This document shows positions 1-10,483 of a stretch of 10,483 nt of DNA, one piece after another. Numbering within the stretch: position 1 is the first letter of the stretch; every line of letters begins with the position of its first letter. Origin of the DNA: an uncultured Lachnospiraceae bacterium (GTDB lineage: Bacteria; Bacillota; Clostridia; Lachnospirales; Lachnospiraceae); the NCBI GenBank assembly GCA_945827765.1, contig CALZPS010000034.1, forward strand, positions 1 through 10,483, in the 5' to 3' direction. The notes under the pieces are model-generated. The model had not been told where the DNA came from and ran no database searches. It was given only the letters and a program-made list of their open reading frames with translations. Both the position numbers and the translations under genes were made by a program.

Positions 1-518
1 GAAGATTTCCCGACACCCGAAGGTCCGGCGATTGCCGTCGTCTTCCCTTTCAGGAGTTGTCTGACCATATCGACATGGATTCCTTCTCTGGCACTGGTAA
101 ATACGACCGGATACCCACATGCACGATAGATTTCTGCCAGTTCTTCAAGCTCCGATTCCGTTGCGATATCTGTTTTATTAAAACATAATATGACCGGAAT
201 CTCTTTGTACTCCATCATCACCAGAAAACGATCCAGCAGATTGAAGTGTGGTTTTGGATCCGTCACTGCAAATACGACTAACGCCTGATCAATATTCGCC
301 ACTGCCGGGCGAATCAGTTCATTTCTGCGTACAAGTACGTCTGTGATGTTCCCGGTTTTTTCTTCCTCATCGAGTACATCCATCTCCACATCATCACCCA
401 CGAGCGGTTTTGTTTTCTCTTTGCGGAATATTCCCCGCGCCTTACACTCATAAAGACCGGATTCTGCTAAATCCACGTAGTAGAACCCGGCAATTCCTCT
501 TATTATCTTTCCCTGCAT
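1..518 (-). CDS. rsgA: Ribosome small-subunit-dependent GTPase RsgA, partial (3' end outside window)
   Basis: RsgA (YjeQ/CpgA) is a circularly permuted GTPase that binds the 30S subunit and helps its late maturation. The first 172 codons are present. The N-terminal part (about residues 1-67) fits the OB-fold RNA-binding domain, with GFYYV at 11-15, RGIFR at 28-32, PLVGD at 38-42 and the family signature RRNELIRP at 64-71. The G4 motif NKTD (114-117) comes before the G1/P-loop GPSGVGKS (165-172), which is the permuted order typical of RsgA. The reading frame is open to the window edge, so the rest of the G domain and the C-terminal zinc-binding domain (normally about 120 more residues) are missing only because the window ends. 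The ATG at 518 has AAGAGG at 529-524, five bases upstream. The gene lies 85 nt after prkC, as in Bacillus, where rsgA (cpgA) follows prkC and its product is reported as a substrate of the PrkC kinase. Confidence 0.96.
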   Translation of the reverse strand, partial: MQGKIIRGIAGFYYVDLAESGLYECKARGIFRKEKTKPLVGDDVEMDVLDEEEKTGNITDVLVRRNELIRPAVANIDQALVVFAVTDPKPHFNLLDRFLVMMEYKEIPVILCFNKTDIATESELEELAEIYRACGYPVVFTSAREGIHVDMVRQLLKGKTTAIAGPSGVGKS

Positions 519-603
519 GAAAACCTCTTATCAGCCTGTAAAACAGACCGCCTGTAACCTATATGGCAAAGTAGTTGCGCTTTATTGTCCGCACCAGATG
601 TGT
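519..603. other. prkC-rsgA spacer without a recognisable element
   Basis: This 85-nt gap is the longest in the cluster. Apart from the rsgA ribosome binding site (529-524) I see no hairpin followed by a T-run on the minus strand and no clear -35/-10 pair. The octamer GCCTGTAA occurs twice (534-541 and 550-557), probably by chance. The two genes are most simply cotranscribed. Confidence 0.5.
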
Positions 604-2763
604 TTACTCGTCTGCGTTACCGCCGCCCGAGTCCGGCTGACCAGTTTCATCCGGGCCGGCACTAATGACGACATTTATCGCAGTTCCCTTTTCCACCTGA
701 CTTCCGGACTGGTATTCCTGATCAATCACCAGCCCCGCCGCTATATTATTATCATATTGGACGAAATCTTCGCCAAGTTTTAATCCCCATTTTTCCAGTT
801 CTCTCTTTGCCTGATCCTTTGTCATTTTATACAACGAAGGTACGGTCACATATTCTGTCTTTTTCCCTTTACTCACGGTCAGTGAAATCGTCGTCCCTTT
901 TGCCGCTTTGGTCGGATTTGCAGTGGACTGGGAAACAACCGTTCCCGCCTCATAATTATTATCATATTCTTCCGTCACACTGACTTTGAATCCTGCATTC
1001 TTCAATGTACTTTCCGCATCACTCTGCAGCCAGCCTACGACATTCGGCACTTCCACTTTTTCTGCGCCAAGGCTGATATATACCTTTATGTGGTCACCTT
1101 CTTTGACTTCTGCTCCTGCGGATGGTTCGGTGGAAATGACCTTCCCTTCTTCCACAGTCTCATCATATTTTGCCTCGGCATTTGCAACCAGATTCTTCTC
1201 CGCCAACAGCTTTTCTGCTTCTTCTTCGGACTTACCGACCACATTCGGCACATAGGTATCTTTAATTTCCGGCCCGGCACTCACCACCACATAAACCGTT
1301 GTGTTTTTCTCAATTTTTTTATTGGCAGCCACGCTCTGCTCCATGACGTGTCCTTCTTCATACTGATCCGATGCCCGGCGCTCAGACACAGCATATCCGA
1401 GATTTCTGTCGTTCAATGCTTTTTTTGCCTGTGATTCTGTCATATTGAGCAGATTCGGCACTGCCACTTTCTCATCTGTCTCTGTATTTGTGCTTGGCCC
1501 CACACTCTTAAAGAGTCCTGCTGCCTGTGACAGAAGCAAAGCTCCTACGAGGACCACGACAACCGCCGCCACGACTAATAAAATCTTCATGATTTTCTGC
1601 GTGTCCGGATCCAGCGAATTCTTACTCGTTCCCCGGGAATCTCCGTTTCTTCGCCGCTCTTTTTCCCGGCGGTTCTGTGCTCTTCTGCGCTCCTCCTGCT
1701 CATCGTAATCGTCATCATAGTCATCGTCGTCGTAATCATCTTCCTCGTCATAATCGCGGGCGCGCACTCTTTCTCTTGCTGTTCTGTCATCTCTGCGTAC
1801 AGCGTCACGGCTGTCCCGGGATTTCAAGTTGCGTCTTTTCACCTGCTCGATTTCTTCATCCGACATTACGACCGTTTCCGTTCCCCGGCTTGCCATCCGC
1901 CCGGTCTGACCGGAATAAATCACATTCACGAAATCTCCGTCCGGATCTACGAGAGAATGCTTTAAGTCCGTAATCACTTCCTGACAATCCTGATACCGCT
2001 TTGCGACGCTCTTCTGCGTACATTTCATAATGATACATTCCAGACTGTGCGGAATATCCGGCACTTCTTTAGACGGCAGCGGCATCTCCTCTTTCAGATG
2101 TTTCACCGCCACTGTCACGGTCGAATCCCCGTCAAACGGCACATGTCCGGTAATCATTTCGAACATTGTAATACCGGCAGAATAGATATCGCTTTTCTCA
2201 TCCACCACACCGCCGCGAGCCTGTTCCGGTGAAGTATAATGAACAGACCCCATCACATTCGTACTGATGGTGTTCGTCGATGTCGTCGCCCGGGCGATAC
2301 CAAAATCCGTCACCTTGACTTTGCCATCCCGGGAGATAATGATATTCTGCGGTTTAATATCCCGATGAATAATGTGATGATTGTGAGCTGCCTGAATACC
2401 CGTCATCATCTGTATAGCAATACTGATTGTCTCTTTGGCAGACAAACTCTGTTTCTTTTCGATATAATCCTTCAGCGTGATGCCCTCGACCAGTTCCATG
2501 ACCATATAATACAGACCGCGGTCCTGCCCTACGTCATAGACATTCACTACGTTCGGATGCATCAGTCCGGCTGCTGCCTGAGCCTCACTGACAAACTTCT
2601 GTATAAATACCTCATCGTTGCGGTAATCGCTTTTCAATACTTTTACCGCCACAAAACGGTTCAGCTTGTGATCTTTACTTTTATACACATCCGCCATGCC
2701 GCCTGAGCCAATCCGTTCCAGTATTTCATAGCGCTTTCCTAAAAATACTCCCTCTTTTAACAT
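604..2763 (-). CDS. prkC: Membrane Ser/Thr protein kinase with four PASTA domains (PrkC/Stk1 type)
   Basis: Eukaryotic-type Hanks kinase of 719 aa that senses muropeptides or lipid II through its outer PASTA domains and phosphorylates translation, division and cell-wall proteins. The cytoplasmic kinase domain (about 12-270) has a glycine loop GSGGMADV (19-26), catalytic Lys41, helix-C Glu60, HRDIKPQN (133-140, catalytic Asp135), DFG (153-155), and a Thr/Ser-rich activation loop (160-177) before SPE (178-180). A charged juxtamembrane linker follows: an Asp/Tyr/Glu-rich stretch at about 337-358, then an Arg-rich stretch at 359-372. One membrane segment lies at about 391-411. The outer region has four PASTA repeats at about 433-497, 503-566, 569-633 and 638-703, then a short Gly/Asp/Glu tail. 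Length and design match Firmicutes PrkC; PASTA number varies, usually three to five. The ATG at 2763 overlaps the end of prpC by 7 nt and has GAGGTGA at 2777-2771, so translation is probably coupled to the phosphatase. Confidence 0.97.
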   Translation of the reverse strand: MLKEGVFLGKRYEILERIGSGGMADVYKSKDHKLNRFVAVKVLKSDYRNDEVFIQKFVSEAQAAAGLMHPNVVNVYDVGQDRGLYYMVMELVEGITLKDYIEKKQSLSAKETISIAIQMMTGIQAAHNHHIIHRDIKPQNIIISRDGKVKVTDFGIARATTSTNTISTNVMGSVHYTSPEQARGGVVDEKSDIYSAGITMFEMITGHVPFDGDSTVTVAVKHLKEEMPLPSKEVPDIPHSLECIIMKCTQKSVAKRYQDCQEVITDLKHSLVDPDGDFVNVIYSGQTGRMASRGTETVVMSDEEIEQVKRRNLKSRDSRDAVRRDDRTARERVRARDYDEEDDYDDDDYDDDYDEQEERRRAQNRREKERRRNGDSRGTSKNSLDPDTQKIMKILLVVAAVVVVLVGALLLSQAAGLFKSVGPSTNTETDEKVAVPNLLNMTESQAKKALNDRNLGYAVSERRASDQYEEGHVMEQSVAANKKIEKNTTVYVVVSAGPEIKDTYVPNVVGKSEEEAEKLLAEKNLVANAEAKYDETVEEGKVISTEPSAGAEVKEGDHIKVYISLGAEKVEVPNVVGWLQSDAESTLKNAGFKVSVTEEYDNNYEAGTVVSQSTANPTKAAKGTTISLTVSKGKKTEYVTVPSLYKMTKDQAKRELEKWGLKLGEDFVQYDNNIAAGLVIDQEYQSGSQVEKGTAINVVISAGPDETGQPDSGGGNADE

Positions 2764-3503
2764 ACAATACTCACCTCATCTGTAAATGGTTCTACCAGAA
2801 CAACTCCGATATTGTCTGTTCCGCCGTTTTCTTTCGCCGCTGCAACCAGTGCTGTGCCGGCCTCCACGATGTCCCTGCCGCCCTGCACAATGTGAAAAAG
2901 CTCTTCATCCTCCACCATGTTGCTCAATCCGTCAGTGCACATCAATATGATGTCCCCCCGTTTCAGGCGGTGCTCATAAAAGTCCACTTCCACGCCCTCT
3001 TTTGCCCCGATTGCCCGGGTAATGATATTCTTATCCGGATGATGCTTTGCCTCCTCCGGCTTAATGCCCCCGAGACGTACCATTTCCTCCACCAGAGAAT
3101 GGTCTTTGGTAAGCTGGGTAATCCCCTGATTAATCAGATACAGACGGCTGTCCCCCACATTTGCAAAATACATCATCTGCCGGACAATCGTCGCTGCCAC
3201 TATGGTCGTCCCCATCCCTTTGAGATGTGTATCCTCCGATGCCTTTTTGATAATCTCTTTGTTCGCTTTCTTAATCGCAGACACAAGTGCTTTCTCCACA
3301 TCCGTCTCGTCGGTTTGTTTCAACTCCTGCTTCACAACCTCGACCGTATACTTAGATGCAAAATCTCCTGCCTGATGTCCTCCCATACCGTCTGCCACCA
3401 CAAATAAATTCGGCAATGTTCCCAGCGGGGTATCCGATGTATACACATAATCCTGATTCACTTGTCTTACCATTCCCACATCAGTGATTGAAAACGTCTT
3501 CAT
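2757..3503 (-). CDS. prpC: PP2C-family Ser/Thr protein phosphatase (PrpC/Stp)
   Basis: Manganese/magnesium-dependent phosphatase that removes phosphates from PrkC and its substrates. With the chosen start it is 248 aa, the normal size for a single-domain bacterial PP2C. Visible motifs: an N-terminal TDVG followed by NQD (16-18), VADGMGGHQAGD beginning at 36 with metal ligand Asp38, GDSR in the NVGDSRLYL segment, CTDGLSN with Asp191, and GGTDNIGVV with Asp230. These are the expected metal-binding aspartates. An in-frame ATG at 3518 overlaps the rlmN stop, but it has no Shine-Dalgarno sequence. The ATG at 3503 has AAGGAGA five bases upstream and gives the usual family beginning MKTFSITD, so it is preferred. 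No signal peptide or membrane segment is seen, so the enzyme should be cytoplasmic. It lies directly before prkC and overlaps it by 7 nt, the usual kinase/phosphatase pairing. Confidence 0.96.
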   Translation of the reverse strand: MKTFSITDVGMVRQVNQDYVYTSDTPLGTLPNLFVVADGMGGHQAGDFASKYTVEVVKQELKQTDETDVEKALVSAIKKANKEIIKKASEDTHLKGMGTTIVAATIVRQMMYFANVGDSRLYLINQGITQLTKDHSLVEEMVRLGGIKPEEAKHHPDKNIITRAIGAKEGVEVDFYEHRLKRGDIILMCTDGLSNMVEDEELFHIVQGGRDIVEAGTALVAAAKENGGTDNIGVVLVEPFTDEVSIVC

Positions 3504-3508
3504 AAAAA

Positions 3509-3515
3509 TCTCCTT
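3509..3515 (-). promoter_or_regulatory. Ribosome binding site fixing the prpC start
   Basis: The minus strand reads AAGGAGA, followed by five bases and then ATG at 3503. It overlaps the rlmN stop codon (3517-3515) by one base. The upstream in-frame ATG at 3518 has no comparable site, so this element decides the start in favour of 3503. Confidence 0.85.
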
Positions 3516-4543
3516 CATTCTATGTAACGCCGTCTAAGCTGTCCGCATGCACCATCAATGTCAGCGCCCATTTCTCTTCTTATAGTAACATTTATTCCGT
3601 TTTTTTCAAGTTTATTTTTGAAATTCATCGCATTTTTCCGGCTCGGCTGTTCAAAATCACGTTCTTTGACCGGATTGACCGGAATCAAATTAATATGACA
3701 GTTGCGCGGTCTGGCGATTGCCGTCAGTTCCCTCGCATCCTCATCGCTGTCATTGACACCGTCTATCAAACTATATTCAAACGTAATACGACGCCCTGTC
3801 CTGTCAAAATATTCGTCGCAGGCATCAAGCACCTCCGGCAACGTATAACGGTTTGCCACCGGCATCAATTCTTTTCGTTTCTCCTGTGTAGAGCCATGCA
3901 GGGAAAGTGCCAGCGTGATCTGTAAATTTTCCTCCGCCAATTCTTTGATTCTGGGAACAATTCCGCAGGTCGATACAGTGACATTTCTCTGGCTGATATG
4001 AAGTCCGTGCTCATCCGTCAGCATGCGAATGAATTTGACAAAATTATCATAATTGTCGAGCGGTTCTCCCGTACCCATCACCACCACATGGGAGATACGT
4101 TCACCGATAATCTTCTGAATCCGGTAAATCTGTGCGAGCATCTCAGAAGGAGCCAGATTGCGCGCCAGTCCGTCCAGTGTGGAGGCACAAAACCGACAGC
4201 CCATCCTACAACCAACCTGCGAAGAGATGCAGACGGAATTGCCATGCTTATAACGCATCAGCACACTCTCCACCATATTGCCGTCATGCAGGCAAAATAA
4301 AAATTTGTTGGTTCCGTCCAGTTTTGACTGTTGGCGCTCGACAGGAGAGACCGTACAGATATCAAACTCTTCTGCCAGCTTTTCTCGTAACGCTTTGGAC
4401 AAATTACTCATTTGTGAAAAATCATCCACAAGTTTGACATGCAGCCATTCATAAATCTGTTTTGCCCGGAACGCTTTCTCACCGATTTTCTCCATCTCTT
4501 CCTGTAATTCTTCGTATGTATAAGAAAGAATATCTTTTTTCAT
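3515..4543 (-). CDS. rlmN: Dual-specificity 23S rRNA (A2503-C2)/tRNA (A37-C2) methyltransferase RlmN
   Basis: Radical SAM enzyme that methylates C2 of A2503 in the ribosomal exit tunnel and, in characterised homologues, A37 of some tRNAs. With start 4543 it is 342 aa, the usual length. The N-terminal accessory domain includes AFRAKQIYEWLH (24-35). The iron-sulfur cluster cysteines form CxxxCxxC at C112, C116 and C119. SAM-binding GTGEPLDNY follows. Both mechanistic cysteines are visible: C105 in VCISSQVGC (the E. coli C118 equivalent) and C333 in GACGQLR near the C-terminus (the methyl carrier). The frame is open further upstream to 4684, but that adds 47 residues overlapping rsmB with no family similarity. 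The ATG at 4543 begins MKKDILSYTYEEL and has AAAGGAA at 4558-4552, eight bases upstream. The gene starts 25 nt after rsmB, and prpC begins 11 nt after its stop. Confidence 0.97.
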   Translation of the reverse strand: MKKDILSYTYEELQEEMEKIGEKAFRAKQIYEWLHVKLVDDFSQMSNLSKALREKLAEEFDICTVSPVERQQSKLDGTNKFLFCLHDGNMVESVLMRYKHGNSVCISSQVGCRMGCRFCASTLDGLARNLAPSEMLAQIYRIQKIIGERISHVVVMGTGEPLDNYDNFVKFIRMLTDEHGLHISQRNVTVSTCGIVPRIKELAEENLQITLALSLHGSTQEKRKELMPVANRYTLPEVLDACDEYFDRTGRRITFEYSLIDGVNDSDEDARELTAIARPRNCHINLIPVNPVKERDFEQPSRKNAMNFKNKLEKNGINVTIRREMGADIDGACGQLRRRYIE

Positions 4544-4551
4544 TCCATTTG

Positions 4552-4558
4552 TTCCTTT
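4552..4558 (-). promoter_or_regulatory. Ribosome binding site for rlmN
   Basis: The minus strand reads AAAGGAA, eight bases before the ATG at 4543, and falls in the 25-nt gap after the rsmB stop. It supports the short 342-aa form over the longer open frame reaching into rsmB. Confidence 0.75.
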
Positions 4559-4568
4559 TTTATACCGT

Positions 4569-5942
4569 TCATTCTTTTTTATTTTTCCCGCTTTCCGCTT
4601 TTTTCTGAAAAGCAGCAATAAAAAAACCGTCGCTCTGATGTACGCCCGGCAGCAACTGCAGGCAGCCCCTGTTTTGCACGTCACCTTTCAATTCTTCCGG
4701 AAGAGACTCACGGATATCCATCAGGGAGAATGCCGGAAAATGTTCCAAAAACCAATCTACATTTTCCATATTTTCCGCCGCATGAATCGTGCAGGTACTG
4801 TACAAAAGTTTCCCTCCCGGCTTTACATAGCACTGTACTGTCTGCAGAATCTGTCTCTGCAATTCTGCCAGTTTTTGTGCATTTTCCAACGTCGCTTTGT
4901 ATTTTAAATCCGTCTTTCTGCCCAATACCCCCAGACCGGAACAAGGCAGGTCAGCCAATAGGATATCTGCTGTTTCTTTCGCAGATTCATCCAATTCCAG
5001 AGCGTCCCACACGACTGCCTCTATATTTTGAAATCCCGACCGCAATATATTATCTTCGATCAGCTCCACTTTATAAGAAGACAAATCGCGCGCCTGTACT
5101 CTGCCTGTTCCATTCAGTTTTTCAGCTATATGAAGGCTCTTCCCACCGGGAGCGGCACACACATCCATTACCGTGTCTCCTTCTTTGGGCGATGCAATTT
5201 CCCCCACCAGCATAGAACTCACATCCTGTACATAAAAGTCTCCGTTTTGGAAACTGTCAAGGTCTGCAAGATAATCGTAACCGGAGATAGTAAACGCATA
5301 TGGCAAATATGGATGCTGCTGTACAACTGCCCCTTCCCGCGTCAATTTCCGCACCAATTCCTCCGGCGCATTATGTTGCAGATTACAGCGGACAGTAAGA
5401 GGTGTTTCTGCCTGAAATGCTGCCAGCATTCGTTCTACCGTCGCGCCGTCATAAGACTGAAGCCACAGTTTTAGTATCCACTCCGGCATAGAATAACGAA
5501 CAGAAAGTCGCTGCAGTTCTTCCTGCGGATATTTGACATTGTCCAGATTACGTGCCACATTGCGCAGCACTCCGTTTACAAAGCCTTTCAGGTTGACAAA
5601 CCCTTTTCTCACCGCCAGTTTGACGGCCTCATTACAGACCGCCGAATCCGGTACGGTATCCATATATTTCAACTGGTACACCGCACTGCGTAAAATGTTG
5701 CGAATGACCGGTTTCATTTTCCTGACTTTCACCTTGGAGAACTGATCTAATATATAATCCAACTCCAGCATATGTTCCAGCGTACCTTCACTCACCCGGG
5801 TGATAAAGGCCCGCTCCTTCTTATCCATATACTGGTATTTGGAAAGTACCTCACGCAGTACGATATGGCTGTACATCCCCTTCTCAGACACTTCCATGAG
5901 AATATCCAGCACCAGTTCCCTCTCATTTACCGCTTTATTCAT
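4569..5942 (-). CDS. rsmB: 16S rRNA (cytosine967-C5)-methyltransferase RsmB (Sun/Fmu)
   Basis: SAM-dependent enzyme that makes m5C967 (E. coli numbering) in 16S rRNA. From the ATG at 5942 it is 457 aa, a typical size. The N-terminal NusB-like RNA-binding domain covers about 1-135, with VPDSAVCNEAVKLA at 97-110 and KGFVNGVLRN at 119-128. The Rossmann methyltransferase domain follows: SAM motif DVCAAPGGK (260-268), motif IV DLPCSGLGVLGRK with Cys334 (331-343), and motif VI STCTIHAAEN with the catalytic-type Cys384 (382-391). The two cysteines are the nucleophile and release residues of RNA m5C methyltransferases. The C-terminal HQSDGFFIAAFQK is the usual closing strand. The frame is open upstream to 6023, but those 27 residues overlap yugP and have no family look. 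The ATG at 5942 has GGGAGAGG five bases upstream and overlaps the yugP end by 8 nt, suggesting coupled translation. Confidence 0.97.
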   Translation of the reverse strand: MNKAVNERELVLDILMEVSEKGMYSHIVLREVLSKYQYMDKKERAFITRVSEGTLEHMLELDYILDQFSKVKVRKMKPVIRNILRSAVYQLKYMDTVPDSAVCNEAVKLAVRKGFVNLKGFVNGVLRNVARNLDNVKYPQEELQRLSVRYSMPEWILKLWLQSYDGATVERMLAAFQAETPLTVRCNLQHNAPEELVRKLTREGAVVQQHPYLPYAFTISGYDYLADLDSFQNGDFYVQDVSSMLVGEIASPKEGDTVMDVCAAPGGKSLHIAEKLNGTGRVQARDLSSYKVELIEDNILRSGFQNIEAVVWDALELDESAKETADILLADLPCSGLGVLGRKTDLKYKATLENAQKLAELQRQILQTVQCYVKPGGKLLYSTCTIHAAENMENVDWFLEHFPAFSLMDIRESLPEELKGDVQNRGCLQLLPGVHQSDGFFIAAFQKKAESGKNKKE

Positions 5943-6660
5943 CTCGTCCTCTCCCTGTCTTTCTGGAGACAATCGCCAGTATACGTATGAACTGCAAAAC
6001 AGAGCTGATTGTTCCCGCCACATACGTCATGGCTGCGGCGCTCAATACTTTTTTCGTGTCTTTTATATCTTCTCCGTAAAGAATCCCATCGGATTCCAAA
6101 ATTTTCAAAGCCCGCCCGGAGGCATTGAACTCGACAGGCAATGTAACCAGCTGAAACAATACTGCCGCTGAAAACATAATAATTCCCAAATGAAGGAGAA
6201 TGTTTCCCCAATCCGGCAGGCTGTCGGTCATGAGAAATCCCAGTAAAATCAGTGGCCATGAAATCTGTGAGCCAAAATTGACCACCGGAACCAGTGCCCC
6301 TCGAATGGTAAGCGGCACATATCCCGTCTCATGCTGCAGGACATGACCGCACTCATGTGCCGCCACGCCAATTGCCGCCACAGAGGCTGAATCATAGACC
6401 GCATCGGACAGATTGACCGTCTGGCTGCGCGGGTCATAGTGATCTGTCAGGTTTCCCGCCACTCTGCGCACAGTCACTCCCTGCACACCATTTCTGCGCA
6501 AAATCCGCTCCGCCACTTCTCTCCCGGTCATCCCCGTACGGCTTCGTACCCGGGAATACTTTTGATAGGTACTTTTTACACGGGCTGATGCCAGCATCGA
6601 AAGCACCACTCCGATTACAATCAAGATATAAGTCGGATCCATATAATAATAAAACGGCAT
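5935..6660 (-). CDS. yugP: Membrane zinc metallopeptidase, YugP family (Zn_peptidase_2)
   Basis: Putative neutral zinc metallopeptidase of 241 aa, with no experimentally settled substrate that I know of. The zinc-binding HExxH motif is HECGH at 102-106 (His102, Glu103, His106). LPVEFNAS at 174-181 is the second conserved family block, and Glu177 is the probable third zinc ligand. Hydrophobic segments at about 11-26, 121-143, 154-175 and 212-231 predict an integral membrane protein; the short N-terminal segment after MPFYYYMDP is typical of the family. The frame extends upstream to a TTG at 6711 overlapping fmt, but the ATG at 6660 has a strong GGAGG six bases upstream, so the shorter form is used. 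It sits 40 nt after fmt and overlaps rsmB by 8 nt. Bacillus subtilis has yugP elsewhere, so this is a lineage-specific insertion in the operon. A role in membrane or cell-surface proteolysis is an inference only. Confidence 0.92.
   Translation of the reverse strand: MPFYYYMDPTYILIVIGVVLSMLASARVKSTYQKYSRVRSRTGMTGREVAERILRRNGVQGVTVRRVAGNLTDHYDPRSQTVNLSDAVYDSASVAAIGVAAHECGHVLQHETGYVPLTIRGALVPVVNFGSQISWPLILLGFLMTDSLPDWGNILLHLGIIMFSAAVLFQLVTLPVEFNASGRALKILESDGILYGEDIKDTKKVLSAAAMTYVAGTISSVLQFIRILAIVSRKTGRGRDE
5948..5955 (-). promoter_or_regulatory. Ribosome binding site for rsmB, inside the end of yugP
   Basis: The minus strand reads GGGAGAGG, five bases before the rsmB ATG at 5942. It lies within the last codons of the peptidase gene and fits translational coupling across the 8-nt overlap (5935-5942). 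Confidence 0.7.
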
Positions 6661-6666
6661 CTTATT

Positions 6667-6671
6667 CCTCC
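6667..6671 (-). promoter_or_regulatory. Strong ribosome binding site fixing the yugP start
   Basis: The minus strand reads GGAGG within TGGAGGAATAAG, six bases before the ATG at 6660. It rules out the upstream TTG start at 6711, which would add 17 residues overlapping fmt. Confidence 0.85.
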
Positions 6672-6700
6672 ATTCTTTTACACGATGAATTTCTGTCTTC

Positions 6701-7684
6701 TTATCGGGCAACCGTGCGCAGCACAGTTCCTTCCGTCAATGCATAACCGCGCAAGAACGCTCCTGCTTCCATCCGTTTTTTGCCCGGAATCTGCAATTCT
6801 TTTACTCTCAAAAATCCTTCCCCGGTCTGTACCAGAAAACTGTCCTTCTCCACACATACAACCGTTCCCGGCTGTGCCGCTTCGGCAAGCTCTCTTTCCT
6901 TCGCTTTGGCATCCTCTGCGCAGTCTGTCTCAGTGACTGCCTGTGCCTCCCAGATTTTCATCACCTGTCCATCCCAGTCAGTATATGCACTTGGCCAGGA
7001 ATTTAATCCCCTCACCAGTCGTTCAATTTCCACAGCCGGTCTCGCCCAGTCGATATTTCCCATCTCTTTGGTCAGCATCTTCGCATAAGGAGTCGGGCTC
7101 TCGCCTTGTTTCTGTGCCCGGATACTTCCTGTCTCAATTTCTCTCAGCGTCTGGACACAAAGCGAGGCACCCGCTGCCGCCAGCTTATCATGAAGGCTTT
7201 CTCCTGTCTCCTGTGCAGTAATTGACACTTCGGTTTTGAGCAGCATATCACCGGTGTCTAATCCCTCATCCATCTGCATGGTCGTCACACCGGTCACTTT
7301 CTCGCCATTAAGAATCGCCCACTGAATCGGTGCCGCACCGCGGTATTTCGGCAAAAGTGACGCGTGTACATTGATACAGCCATATGGTGTCATCTGCAGA
7401 ATCTCCTTCGGCAGAATCTGTCCGAACGCTATCACGACAATGACATCTGCCTGATAACGTTTCAGCGTTTCCACACATTCCGGTTCCCTGATTCTTTTCG
7501 GCTGGAACACTTCTATACCATGACGCAGTGCGGCCTCTTTGACGGGGGTAAACTGCCATTTTCCGCCGCGTCCTTTTGGTTTGTCAGGCTGGGTCACAAC
7601 CAGACATACTTCATGTCCTGCTTCAATCAACGCCTCCAATGTTCCTACGGAAAAATCCGGGGTTCCCATAAAAATAATTCGCAT
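6701..7684 (-). CDS. fmt: Methionyl-tRNA formyltransferase
   Basis: Transfers a formyl group from 10-formyl-tetrahydrofolate to initiator Met-tRNA, giving the fMet used to start bacterial translation. It is 327 aa, close to the usual 310-320. The N-terminal Rossmann-type formyltransferase domain starts MRIIFMGTPDFSVGTLEAL. The catalytic triad is visible as Asn105, His107 and Asp143, within INVHASLLPKYRGAAPIQWA (104-123) and MDEGLDTGDM (138-147). GRGGKW at 38-43 lies in the loop region that in homologues contacts the tRNA acceptor end. The C-terminal OB-like domain (from about 210) includes RGLNSWPSAYT and ends near residue 320. An Ala/Glu/Lys-rich stretch around 255-270 looks like a modest insertion in this domain. 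The ATG at 7684 has AGGAGTG eight bases upstream. It follows def by 69 nt; def and fmt carry out opposite steps of the formyl cycle and are usually neighbours. Confidence 0.98.
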   Translation of the reverse strand: MRIIFMGTPDFSVGTLEALIEAGHEVCLVVTQPDKPKGRGGKWQFTPVKEAALRHGIEVFQPKRIREPECVETLKRYQADVIVVIAFGQILPKEILQMTPYGCINVHASLLPKYRGAAPIQWAILNGEKVTGVTTMQMDEGLDTGDMLLKTEVSITAQETGESLHDKLAAAGASLCVQTLREIETGSIRAQKQGESPTPYAKMLTKEMGNIDWARPAVEIERLVRGLNSWPSAYTDWDGQVMKIWEAQAVTETDCAEDAKAKERELAEAAQPGTVVCVEKDSFLVQTGEGFLRVKELQIPGKKRMEAGAFLRGYALTEGTVLRTVAR

Positions 7685-7710
7685 GCTCGGTTCACTCCTT
7701 TTTTAGTGCC

Positions 7711-7755
7711 ACGCTTTTTATATCTCACGTTTTATATTTCACGCGTTTGTGCCTC
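7711..7755. repeat. Three degenerate tandem units of about 15 nt in the def-fmt gap
   Basis: Plus-strand units are ACGCTTTTTATATCTC (7711-7726), ACGTTTTATATTTC (7727-7740) and ACGCGTTTGTGCCTC (7741-7755). The first two agree closely apart from small deletions. The third is weaker and runs into the def stop codon (7756-7754). This is most of the 69-nt gap between def and fmt. No function is evident, and it could be simple slippage in an AT-rich spacer. Confidence 0.4.
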
Positions 7756-8251
7756 ACACTTCTTCCTCATACTCTTCCATCGTATCCTCATCGTATACAA
7801 CCTCGCGCAGACCACCTTCCACTTTATCCACATACATGATACCTTTCAGGTGGTCAATTTCGTGACATAATGCACGTGCCAGAAGCTCTTCTCCCTCAAT
7901 TTCAATCTCCTCCATATCTTCATTGAGGCAGCGTACCCTGACATAATTGGGTCTTGTCACGGTTCCGACCTTGCCCGGTACACTTAGACATCCTTCATCT
8001 CCGGTCTGCTCACCGGAGCTTTCTATAATCTCCGGATTAATCAACACAAACGGGCCGTCTCCGATATCCACTACCACGATCTGTTTGAGGATGCCAACCT
8101 GCGGTGCTGCCAGACCGACGCCTTCCTCTTCATACATAGTATCCAGCATATCATTAATCAAGATCCTTGTACGCAGTGTCATCTTGGTCACCGGTTTGCT
8201 CTGTTTTCTTAAAATATCATCTCCTATTTCACGAACTTGTCTGATTGCCAT
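7754..8251 (-). CDS. def: Peptide deformylase
   Basis: Metalloenzyme that removes the formyl group from the N-terminal fMet of new proteins at the ribosome. It is 165 aa. All three family motifs are intact: [10 protein letters not shown] (44-53), EGCLSVPG (86-93) and HEIDHLKG (130-137). The metal ligands are Cys88, His130 and His134, with Glu131 as the catalytic acid/base and Gln51 in the oxyanion position. The EGCLS motif and short form fit the type I/short Firmicutes class rather than the longer type II Def. The C-terminus is very acidic ([15 protein letters not shown]). The ATG at 8251 has AAGGAGA at 8266-8260, eight bases upstream. It lies 26 nt after priA and 69 nt before fmt in the same transcript. 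Confidence 0.98.
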
Positions 8252-8277
8252 TTTCTTTGTCTCCTTCTATACAATTA

Positions 8278-10437
8278 TTAGAATATCTTCATCGGATTAA
8301 AATCAAATTGAATCCGCATCCGGTCAAATCCACTGTTTAATTCAATATATTGCTCCAGTCGATTTTTCACAAATATCAGTGTATCATATTTTTTGGTTTT
8401 CAGGTAGAGGACTTTTCGATAAATATCATTGATTTTTCTGATTCCCGGACTTGCCGGGCCAATAACTTCGATTTCTTCGCCTCTGCATACTCTGAGTGCA
8501 TACTCTTTCAAATAATGGCAGCCCTTTTCCAGATGTGCTTCATCCTCACAGCTTACAAGCACTGCCAGCAGATTTTCGGCAGGAGGATAGCCCATCAGCT
8601 GCCGATAACGGATTTCTTCTTCATAGAATGCAGCATAGTCCTGCGATGCCGCCGTCTCCACGGCATAGTGCTGCGGACTGTAAGTCTGAATCACCGCCTC
8701 GCCGGGTTTGCTGCCCCGTCCCGCGCGCCCGACCGCCTGAGTGAGAAGCTGAAAAGTACGCTCTCCCGCACGATAATCGTCGCTATAAAGTGACATATCC
8801 GCCGCCAGTATCCCAACCAGCGTTACATTTGGGAAATCATGTCCTTTGACAATCATCTGGGTGCCTACCAGCACATCGGCCTCCTCATTGGCAAATGCTG
8901 CCAGGATTTTTTCATGTCCGTCCTTCTCCCGGGTGGTGTCCATATCCATTCTAAGCACCCTCACCCCCGGAAACTGCATTTTCACAATTTCTTCAATCTG
9001 CTGCGTTCCCGCCCGGAATTCTCCGATATGACGAGAACCGCATTCCGGACAGACTGCCGGTTTTGGCTCTTCATAACCGCAATAATGGCACACCATCCTG
9101 CCTCCCCGGTGGAAAGACAAGGAGACATCACAGTGCGGACATTTCACGACATGACCACATTCCCGGCATGAAATAAAACCAGCGTATCCACGGCGGTTTA
9201 AAAACAGCATGATCTGCTCTTTTTTCTGCAGACGATCCTCCATCAATTCTGTCAGTTTGCCGCTCAAAATCGAGCGGTTGCCGTTTTTTAACTCCTCACG
9301 TAAATCAACCACATGCACCTGTGCCATCTTCTGCCGTCCGGTACGGTTTTTGAGCTCCAAAAGCGTATATTCTCCCTGCTTAGCCCGATACATTGCCTCC
9401 AATGATGGGGTCGCCGAACCGAGCACAACACTTGCATGTTCCATTTCCGCTCGGGCAATCGCCGTCTCCCGCGCATGATAACGAGGCACCTGCTCACTTT
9501 TATACGTATTTTCATGCTCCTCGTCTATCACAATCAACCCAAGATTGGGAAATGGGGTAAACAAGGCAGAACGCGGGCCTATCATCACATCAATTTCACC
9601 TTCCTTTGCCCGCATCATCTGGTCGTAACGCTCCCCCGCTGAAAGCCGGGAATGCATGATCGACACCCGCTCCCCAAAACAACGGTAAAAGCGCATCACG
9701 GTCTGAAAGGTAAGCGCAATCTCGGGAATCAGCACAATCGCCTGCCGCCCTTTCTCTGCCACCCGGCGGATCATCTCAATATAGACTTCCGTCTTCCCGC
9801 TCCCGGTTACCCCATGGAGCAGATAGGTTTTATACTGTTCTTTTTCATAGTCTTGCCAGAATGTCTCGATTGCAATCCGCTGTTCTTCCGTAAATGTGAC
9901 GACACTTCCCTGTTTGCTGCCCGCGCCGCCGTTTTGGTGCACGGGATTGCGAAACATCCGCTCGGATTCCAATGCCAGCACGCCCTGCTCTTCCAGCGCC
10001 CGCACAACGCTGAGAGTAATGTTTAGTTTCTTATTGACCAATTCATAATCCAGCATAGAATCGTCCAAAAGCGCCGCCAAAAGCCTTGCCCGTGCACGCT
10101 GGTTCTTCTCCAGATAATGCTCCAGCTTTGCTTTTGCCTCTTCTTCCGTCAAAAGCAGACGGATCTTTTTACGTACCTTCTCCTGCTCTTTCTGCTTGAT
10201 AGGCAGAACCGTTTTGAGTGCCTGAATCATCGTCCCGCCGTAATACTCTTTCATCCATGCAGCAAGCGCAGCCAGTTTTCCTTCGATAGCGATGCCCCTG
10301 CGGGAAATGTCCTCTATTTCCTTTACTTTCGACAAATCATAATCGCAAGTATCGGAAAAACCGATTACATATCCTTTTGTCCGGCGGTTTCCTTTCCCAA
10401 ACGGCACAAAGACTTCCATCCCAATGCAAAGTTCCCC
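8278..10437 (-). CDS. priA: Primosomal replication-restart helicase PriA, 5'-truncated by contig end
   Basis: 3'-to-5' helicase that recognises stalled forks and D-loops and starts primosome reassembly. About 719 codons remain. The first genuine residues, LCIGMEVFVPFGKGNRRTKGYVIG, are the later part of the N-terminal 3'-DNA-binding domain, so roughly 20-30 N-terminal residues are missing. Next come a winged-helix region, Walker A GVTGSGKT (9813-9790), DEEH (9525-9514), GSATPS, and an eight-cysteine zinc domain (about 9041-9168) with CRECGHVVKCPHC and CHYCG...CPECG, inserted between the helicase lobes as expected. VGTQMIVKGHDFPNVT and QAVGRAGRG are motifs V and VI. The C-terminal domain closes at a TAA at 8280-8278. 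An apparent ATG at 10452, beginning MYKRQ, is encoded by sequencing adapter and is not the start; the real start lies upstream of this contig. All catalytic motifs are intact, so the gene is broken only by the assembly. Confidence 0.95.
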   Translation of the reverse strand, partial: GELCIGMEVFVPFGKGNRRTKGYVIGFSDTCDYDLSKVKEIEDISRRGIAIEGKLAALAAWMKEYYGGTMIQALKTVLPIKQKEQEKVRKKIRLLLTEEEAKAKLEHYLEKNQRARARLLAALLDDSMLDYELVNKKLNITLSVVRALEEQGVLALESERMFRNPVHQNGGAGSKQGSVVTFTEEQRIAIETFWQDYEKEQYKTYLLHGVTGSGKTEVYIEMIRRVAEKGRQAIVLIPEIALTFQTVMRFYRCFGERVSIMHSRLSAGERYDQMMRAKEGEIDVMIGPRSALFTPFPNLGLIVIDEEHENTYKSEQVPRYHARETAIARAEMEHASVVLGSATPSLEAMYRAKQGEYTLLELKNRTGRQKMAQVHVVDLREELKNGNRSILSGKLTELMEDRLQKKEQIMLFLNRRGYAGFISCRECGHVVKCPHCDVSLSFHRGGRMVCHYCGYEEPKPAVCPECGSRHIGEFRAGTQQIEEIVKMQFPGVRVLRMDMDTTREKDGHEKILAAFANEEADVLVGTQMIVKGHDFPNVTLVGILAADMSLYSDDYRAGERTFQLLTQAVGRAGRGSKPGEAVIQTYSPQHYAVETAASQDYAAFYEEEIRYRQLMGYPPAENLLAVLVSCEDEAHLEKGCHYLKEYALRVCRGEEIEVIGPASPGIRKINDIYRKVLYLKTKKYDTLIFVKNRLEQYIELNSGFDRMRIQFDFNPMKIF

Positions 10438-10483
10438 CTGTCTCTTATACACATCTCCGAGCCCACGAGACCGTACTAGATCT
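10438..10483 (+). other. Illumina Nextera adapter contamination with i7 barcode
   Basis: Positions 10438-10456 read CTGTCTCTTATACACATCT, the 19-base Tn5 mosaic end used in Nextera libraries. 10457-10471 read CCGAGCCCACGAGAC, the Nextera read-2 adapter. 10472-10479 read CGTACTAG, which I recognise from memory as the i7 N702 index. 10480-10483 read ATCT, the start of the P7 flow-cell tail. The order is exactly that of adapter read-through. The first one to three bases could also be genomic by chance. This is a library artefact and should be trimmed. Confidence 0.98.

What the first reader, a model, noticed from the sequence alone, without database searches (positions are those of the whole stretch)
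10438..10483. Nextera adapter read-through, including a sample barcode, left at the contig end
The terminal 46 bases match in order the Tn5 mosaic end, the Nextera read-2 adapter, an eight-base i7 index (CGTACTAG, matching N702) and the first four bases of the P7 tail. The sequence is therefore chimeric with a synthetic oligonucleotide. The contig really ends at about 10437, and the barcode hints at which library slot the sample used.
Basis: partly seen in the sequence, partly recalled or inferred. Interest (0 to 1): 0.75.

Follow-up and report, generated by a model that had tools for sequence, protein, structure and literature searches.

The report
Untrimmed sequencing adapter at contig end
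The last 46 letters of this piece of bacterial genome are not biology but leftover synthetic sequencing adapter with a sample barcode, and the same leftover sits on about two fifths of the contig ends of this draft genome.

Summary
Confirmed, and ordinary. Bases 10438-10483 are a perfect Nextera read-through: Tn5 mosaic end (19 b), Nextera read-2 adapter (15 b), index CGTACTAG (N702) and ATCT of P7. The window is contig C34 of a 302-contig, 69% complete draft genome. The mosaic end matches 249 times there, against 0 for the reversed control. 52 of 54 barcode-agnostic P7 tails carry CGTACTAG; two differ by one base. The other library side carries TACTCCTT, complement of S507. 4 of 392 genomes sampled from the order hold the mosaic end; the other three carry other indices. 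In 10 of 10 same-genus loci aligned, priA coding sequence stands where the adapter is. A GTG inside the adapter offers priA a false MYKRQ start. Contigs C33 and C152 share exactly 54 bases up to an adapter junction and only C152 continues into genome, so there the adapter split the assembly; for this window's end no continuation was found. Adapter contamination of microbial assemblies is published (PMC11536531). That screen used the TruSeq signature, which has 0 matches in these four genomes.

The parts
10438..10456 (+). Tn5 mosaic end (synthetic), first adapter segment
   Evidence: exact match, none in 200 shuffles; 249 matches in the own genome with up to 2 mismatches, 244 exact
10457..10471 (+). 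Nextera read-2 adapter CCGAGCCCACGAGAC
   Evidence: sequence; with mosaic end and index in 123 places of the own genome
10472..10479 (+). i7 index CGTACTAG (N702)
   Evidence: index table PMC7589761 (passages); 52 of 54 barcode-agnostic P7 tails of the own genome
10480..10483 (+). first four bases of P7 (ATCT)
   Evidence: the longer tail of contig C3 continues ATCTCGT (L004)
8278..10437 (-). priA (replication restart helicase PriA), 719 codons plus stop, lacking about its first 27 codons
   Evidence: NCBIfam TIGR00595, 629 bits against cut-off 230.35; PF17764 matched from profile position 24 here and from 2 in the homologue P0001; P0001 identical at 717 of 719 residues with 27 more at the N-terminus
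10450..10452 (-). GTG inside the adapter, in frame with priA: a false start that gives an artefactual MYKRQ N-terminus if a gene finder uses it
   Evidence: ORF list, 8278..10452, MYKRQGELCIG...

Best explanation
The last 46 bases are Illumina Nextera adapter read-through. Tn5 transposase cut this bacterium's DNA in vitro at window position 10437/10438 and attached the mosaic end and read-2 adapter. The insert was shorter than the read, so the sequencer read out of the genome into the adapter, the N702 index and P7. The reads were not, or not fully, trimmed, and the assembler kept the adapter branch as a contig end. Shown: sequence identity, genome-wide recurrence with one index pair, other indices in other contaminated genomes, relatives without the insert, and one case in which the adapter branch splits a locus that continues in another contig. 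Inferred: short inserts, missed trimming, low coverage, and an assembly word size near 55 as the reason that most tails stop at about 45 bases.
For: Exact adapter string in order. 249 mosaic-end matches in 302 contigs, 0 for the reversed control; 25 of 60 contig starts taken without selection (C100-C159) carry it. Both library sides: 123 P7/N702 and 98 P5/TACTCCTT full strings. One barcode: 52 of 54 P7 tails, the other two one base away. The mosaic end is in 1 of 12 genomes of the genus and 4 of 392 sampled from the order, own genome included; of 20 ends fetched from the other three, the 16 that reach into the index show other indices. Junction base composition departs from background at -1 (p 0.006), -2 (p 0.0001), -4 (p 0.0001) and -6 (p 0.03) among 76 junctions. 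priA continues in 10 of 10 aligned same-genus loci. C33 and C152 share exactly 54 bases up to a junction.
Against: No raw reads were available, so soft-clipping at 10437 was not seen. The composition bias fits the published tagmentation motif only broadly: -3 shows none, -7 is borderline (p 0.05), and position -13, outside the 9-base target, is as uneven (p 0.05; 0.02 without four hand-picked ends). On the word-size account: the spread of tail lengths (sd 1.59) exceeds the model's 0.97 and seven of 73 error-free tails are only 26-37 bases. The link between long tails and adapter errors (5 of 8 against 1 of 78) is inflated because four ends had been picked for lacking the full adapter strings; without them it is 3 of 6 against 1 of 76 (p 0.0009), and all three come from G311, none of three from the own genome.
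Confidence: 0.99

Rival explanations
1. A natural Tn5/IS50-type element, or an in vivo mini-Tn5 insertion, starts inside priA and the mosaic end is its terminus.
For: The first 19 bases are a Tn5 mosaic end.
Against: Synthetic adapter, index and P7 follow, not transposon. The mosaic end matches 249 times in the draft genome and occurs in other genomes with other indices. 11 of 12 genomes of the genus lack it.
Confidence: 0.003
2. At this particular end the contig stopped at a true coverage gap (or its continuation went to another bin), and the adapter is only what the last read carried, not the cause of the break. This does not exclude the best explanation of what the 46 bases are.
For: The protein encoded just upstream of priA in the relatives looked at (murE-like, name from recall) has no close match in the own genome, best 26% identity. 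The last 33 genomic bases occur once only, 1 mismatch allowed. The genome is 69% complete.
Against: At C33/C152 the genome does continue in another contig after an exact 54-base overlap, so there the adapter branch split it. That is 1 of 76 distinct junctions, but they could be compared with 115 fetched stretches only, not the whole genome.
Confidence: 0.55
3. Physical chimera or adapter-dimer ligation rather than read-through of a short insert.
For: Would give the same junction in a single read.
Against: The mosaic end meets genomic DNA directly with an uneven base composition next to the junction, and both library sides occur in comparable numbers, as read-through predicts.
Confidence: 0.01

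Closest known systems
Sequencing-adapter contamination of contig ends in microbial genome databases (Moeller et al. 2024, PMC11536531; parts 1 and 2 of 3 of the text read)
   Same: Adapter strings concentrated at contig ends and their reverse complements at contig starts, in MAGs and isolates; thought to break contigs.
   Different: That study counted the TruSeq signature AGATCGGAAGAG. Here the adapter is Nextera, and that signature has no match in the four Nextera-contaminated genomes tested.
Short-insert adapter read-through in NexteraXT libraries (PMC3906532; abstract and outline seen)
   Same: Inserts shorter than a read leave adapter at the read end.
   Different: That abstract is about reads; here the adapter has passed into an assembly.

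Membership tests
Illumina Nextera adapter read-through | Mosaic end, read-2 adapter, 8-base index and P7 in that order | tested here: met
Illumina Nextera adapter read-through | Index belongs to a kit index list | tested here: met
   N702 CGTACTAG, S507 AAGGAGTA in a table of PMC7589761 (passages)
Illumina Nextera adapter read-through | Lies at contig ends, pointing outwards, both library sides | tested here: met
   of the 100 places listed, all 52 on the reverse strand lie within 53 bases of a contig start; the 21 of 48 forward ones with known contig length begin 26-50 bases before the contig end; both sides
Illumina Nextera adapter read-through | One index pair per library, other pairs in other libraries | tested here: met
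   52 of 54; other indices in G311, G232, G120
Illumina Nextera adapter read-through | Absent from the same place in related genomes | tested here: met
   10 of 10 aligned same-genus loci; in an eleventh, G003, no full priA was found
Illumina Nextera adapter read-through | Tn5 target preference next to the junction | tested here: inconclusive
   bias at -1, -2, -4, -6, but the published motif is met only in part and -13 is uneven too
Illumina Nextera adapter read-through | Raw reads soft-clip at 10437 | not testable with these tools
   no reads held
Natural Tn5/IS50 insertion | Transposon sequence follows the terminus | tested here: not met
   adapter, index and P7 follow instead

The most novel reading that the evidence does not exclude
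Nextera-type adapter ends are a class of contamination that a published TruSeq-signature screen would miss. In such genomes they both split loci and record the index pair of the library and the assembler's word size, so that contaminated public genomes could be found, linked to their libraries and trimmed by one simple screen.
Probability: 0.6. Interest if true: 0.25.

Novelty: already known. Interest (0 to 1): 0.08.

Why it matters
It is a quality-control matter. About two fifths of this draft genome's contig ends are synthetic, genes at those ends can get false starts or tails (here MYKRQ on priA), and at least one locus was split by the artefact. For users of this genome the consequence is to trim contig ends back to the mosaic end. 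Nothing about the organism's biology follows.

Tried and rejected
Natural transposon insertion: rejected (see rivals). Adapter-derived N-termini among PriA homologues: 0 of the 120 proteins listed (of 7976 scored) hold one of four adapter peptide strings in their first 45 residues. Continuation of this contig in the own genome: not found. Viral contigs: 0 matches to the window's own junction; 73 stretches with the N702 adapter string, listed and not analysed. Of the searches on adapter contamination, searches did not show the paper that matters among the rows listed; one search did. One search did not list the NexteraXT paper, which I then opened by a recalled DOI. Passages of PMC3292447 gave no Tn5 consensus string to test against. 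The word-size model fits the mean tail with a word near 55 and about a million junctions, but not the spread.

Rows and counts: one search allowed 2 mismatches (249); exact matching gives 244. 249 of 604 contig ends takes each match as a separate contig end, which I checked only on the places listed and fetched. Of the 76 own-genome junctions, three have one-base adapter changes and were left out of the error-free tail lengths (73); the core mean and spread leave out seven more under 40 bases. Four of the 76 (C91, C85, C65, C97) had been fetched because they lacked the full adapter strings; one search repeats the counts without them. In one search the junction position was extrapolated over 5-15 unaligned bases in four of ten loci.

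Full report
Window 10438-10483 reads mosaic end (19), Nextera read-2 adapter (15), CGTACTAG (8), ATCT (4), and the window ends there. The mosaic end is found once, without mismatch, and in none of 200 shuffles. CGTACTAG is N702 in an index table (PMC7589761, passages).

The window is contig C34 of a draft genome of 1,806,323 bases in 302 contigs, completeness 69.35. The mosaic end matches there 249 times (129 forward, 120 reverse; up to 2 mismatches), with 0 for the pattern read backwards; 244 matches are exact. Of the 100 places listed, all 52 on the reverse strand lie within 53 bases of a contig start; the 21 of 48 forward places with known contig length begin 26-50 bases before the contig end. 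Of 60 contig starts taken without selection, 25 carry it. If each match is one contig end, 249 of 604 is 41%.

Both sides of the library are present. The full P7 string with CGTACTAG occurs 123 times, and the full P5-side string with TACTCCTT, the reverse complement of S507, 98 times. With the index left open, 54 P7 tails long enough to show ATCT were found: 52 read CGTACTAG, one CCTACTAG and one CGTACAAG. So the draft genome bears one index pair.

The string follows the library, not the taxon. In the genus 1 of 12 genomes has it (the own one), in a sample of the order 4 of 392 (own 244, G311 178, G232 35, G120 7). Of 20 ends fetched from the other three, four stop before the index and 16 show indices other than those of the own genome. 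N702 alone therefore does not identify a sample.

The gene at the junction is priA. It meets TIGR00595 (629 bits, cut-off 230.35). The homologue P0001 is identical at 717 of 719 residues and has 27 more at its N-terminus, MFADIIVDITHEKLDKIFQYRVPSRLE. In 10 of 10 same-genus loci aligned (L032-L041) the 46 bases upstream of the junction position match the adapter at 10-15 of 46 places and lie in the open priA frame. L042, from another genus of the family, starts inside the gene and was not aligned; in G003, same genus, no full priA was found. A GTG inside the adapter opens a false start, MYKRQ; none of the 120 listed homologues shows it.

How the tail came to end where it does is inference with some support. 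Error-free tails cluster at 44-47 bases (56 of 73), as expected if an assembler ends a contig where a word of fixed length becomes shared by many adapter ends. A simple model with a word near 55 gives the mean but a narrower spread than seen (0.97 against 1.59). If this is right, tails with sequencing errors should run on longer. Pooled over two genomes, 5 of 8 tails of 48 or more bases have an adapter error against 1 of 78 shorter ones. That count is biased, because four ends had been picked for lacking the full adapter strings; without them it is 3 of 6 against 1 of 76 (p 0.0009), all three from G311 and none of three from the own genome. Independently, C33 (adapter-ended) and C152 share exactly 54 bases up to the junction, after which C152 continues with genome. 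This is one case among 76 distinct junctions compared with 115 fetched stretches. It shows an adapter branch splitting a locus, and an overlap of 54 is what a word of 55 would leave. For C34 itself no continuation was found in the own genome, so a coverage gap remains possible there.

The junctions carry a base bias: -1 C or G 66%, -2 A 49%, -4 A or G 73%, -6 T 41% (76 junctions; p 0.006, 0.0001, 0.0001, 0.03). -7 (T 41%) is borderline and no stronger than -13, which lies outside the target. [quoted passage not shown] The agreement is broad, not exact, and I do not count it as decisive.

The kind of artefact is published. Moeller et al. 2024 (PMC11536531, parts 1 and 2 of 3 read) report significant adapter enrichment in 1110 of 15,657 species assemblies at p<0.01, concentrated at contig ends, and raised N50 in 327 of the 1110 by trimming and reassembly. 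They searched for the TruSeq signature AGATCGGAAGAG. That signature has no match in the four Nextera-contaminated genomes here, so these genomes would pass that screen. Whether a Nextera screen of such databases is in print was not settled; my searches on the matter were made, of which only the top rows were seen.

Verdict: confirmed, artefact, known kind, low interest.

Noticed in passing
L159:4071-4095 (NZ_LT985361.1, Nocardia suismassiliense S-137, 9.1 Mb contig): Nextera read-2/N702/P7 remnant followed by A and C runs, at least 3.9 kb inside a chromosome-size contig, without the mosaic end.
   Followed up: partly
L160:153-177 (NZ_LT985748.1, Alistipes sp. Marseille-P5061): Adapter with N702 and P7 about 150 bases from the end of the stretch held, followed by an A run and further sequence, in a 985-kb isolate contig.
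   Followed up: partly
L045 (G000:C33 start) and L115 (G000:C152 start): Two contigs of the same draft genome share exactly 54 bases up to an adapter junction; one goes into adapter, the other into genome.
   Followed up: yes
G000, G120, G232, G311: Four Nextera-contaminated genomes have no match to the TruSeq signature and would pass a screen built on it.
   Followed up: yes
window 3-10437: Ordinary minus-strand gene run: priA, def, fmt, a zinc metallopeptidase (PF04298), rsmB, rlmN, a PP2C phosphatase, a PASTA kinase and a cut rsgA.
   Followed up: partly
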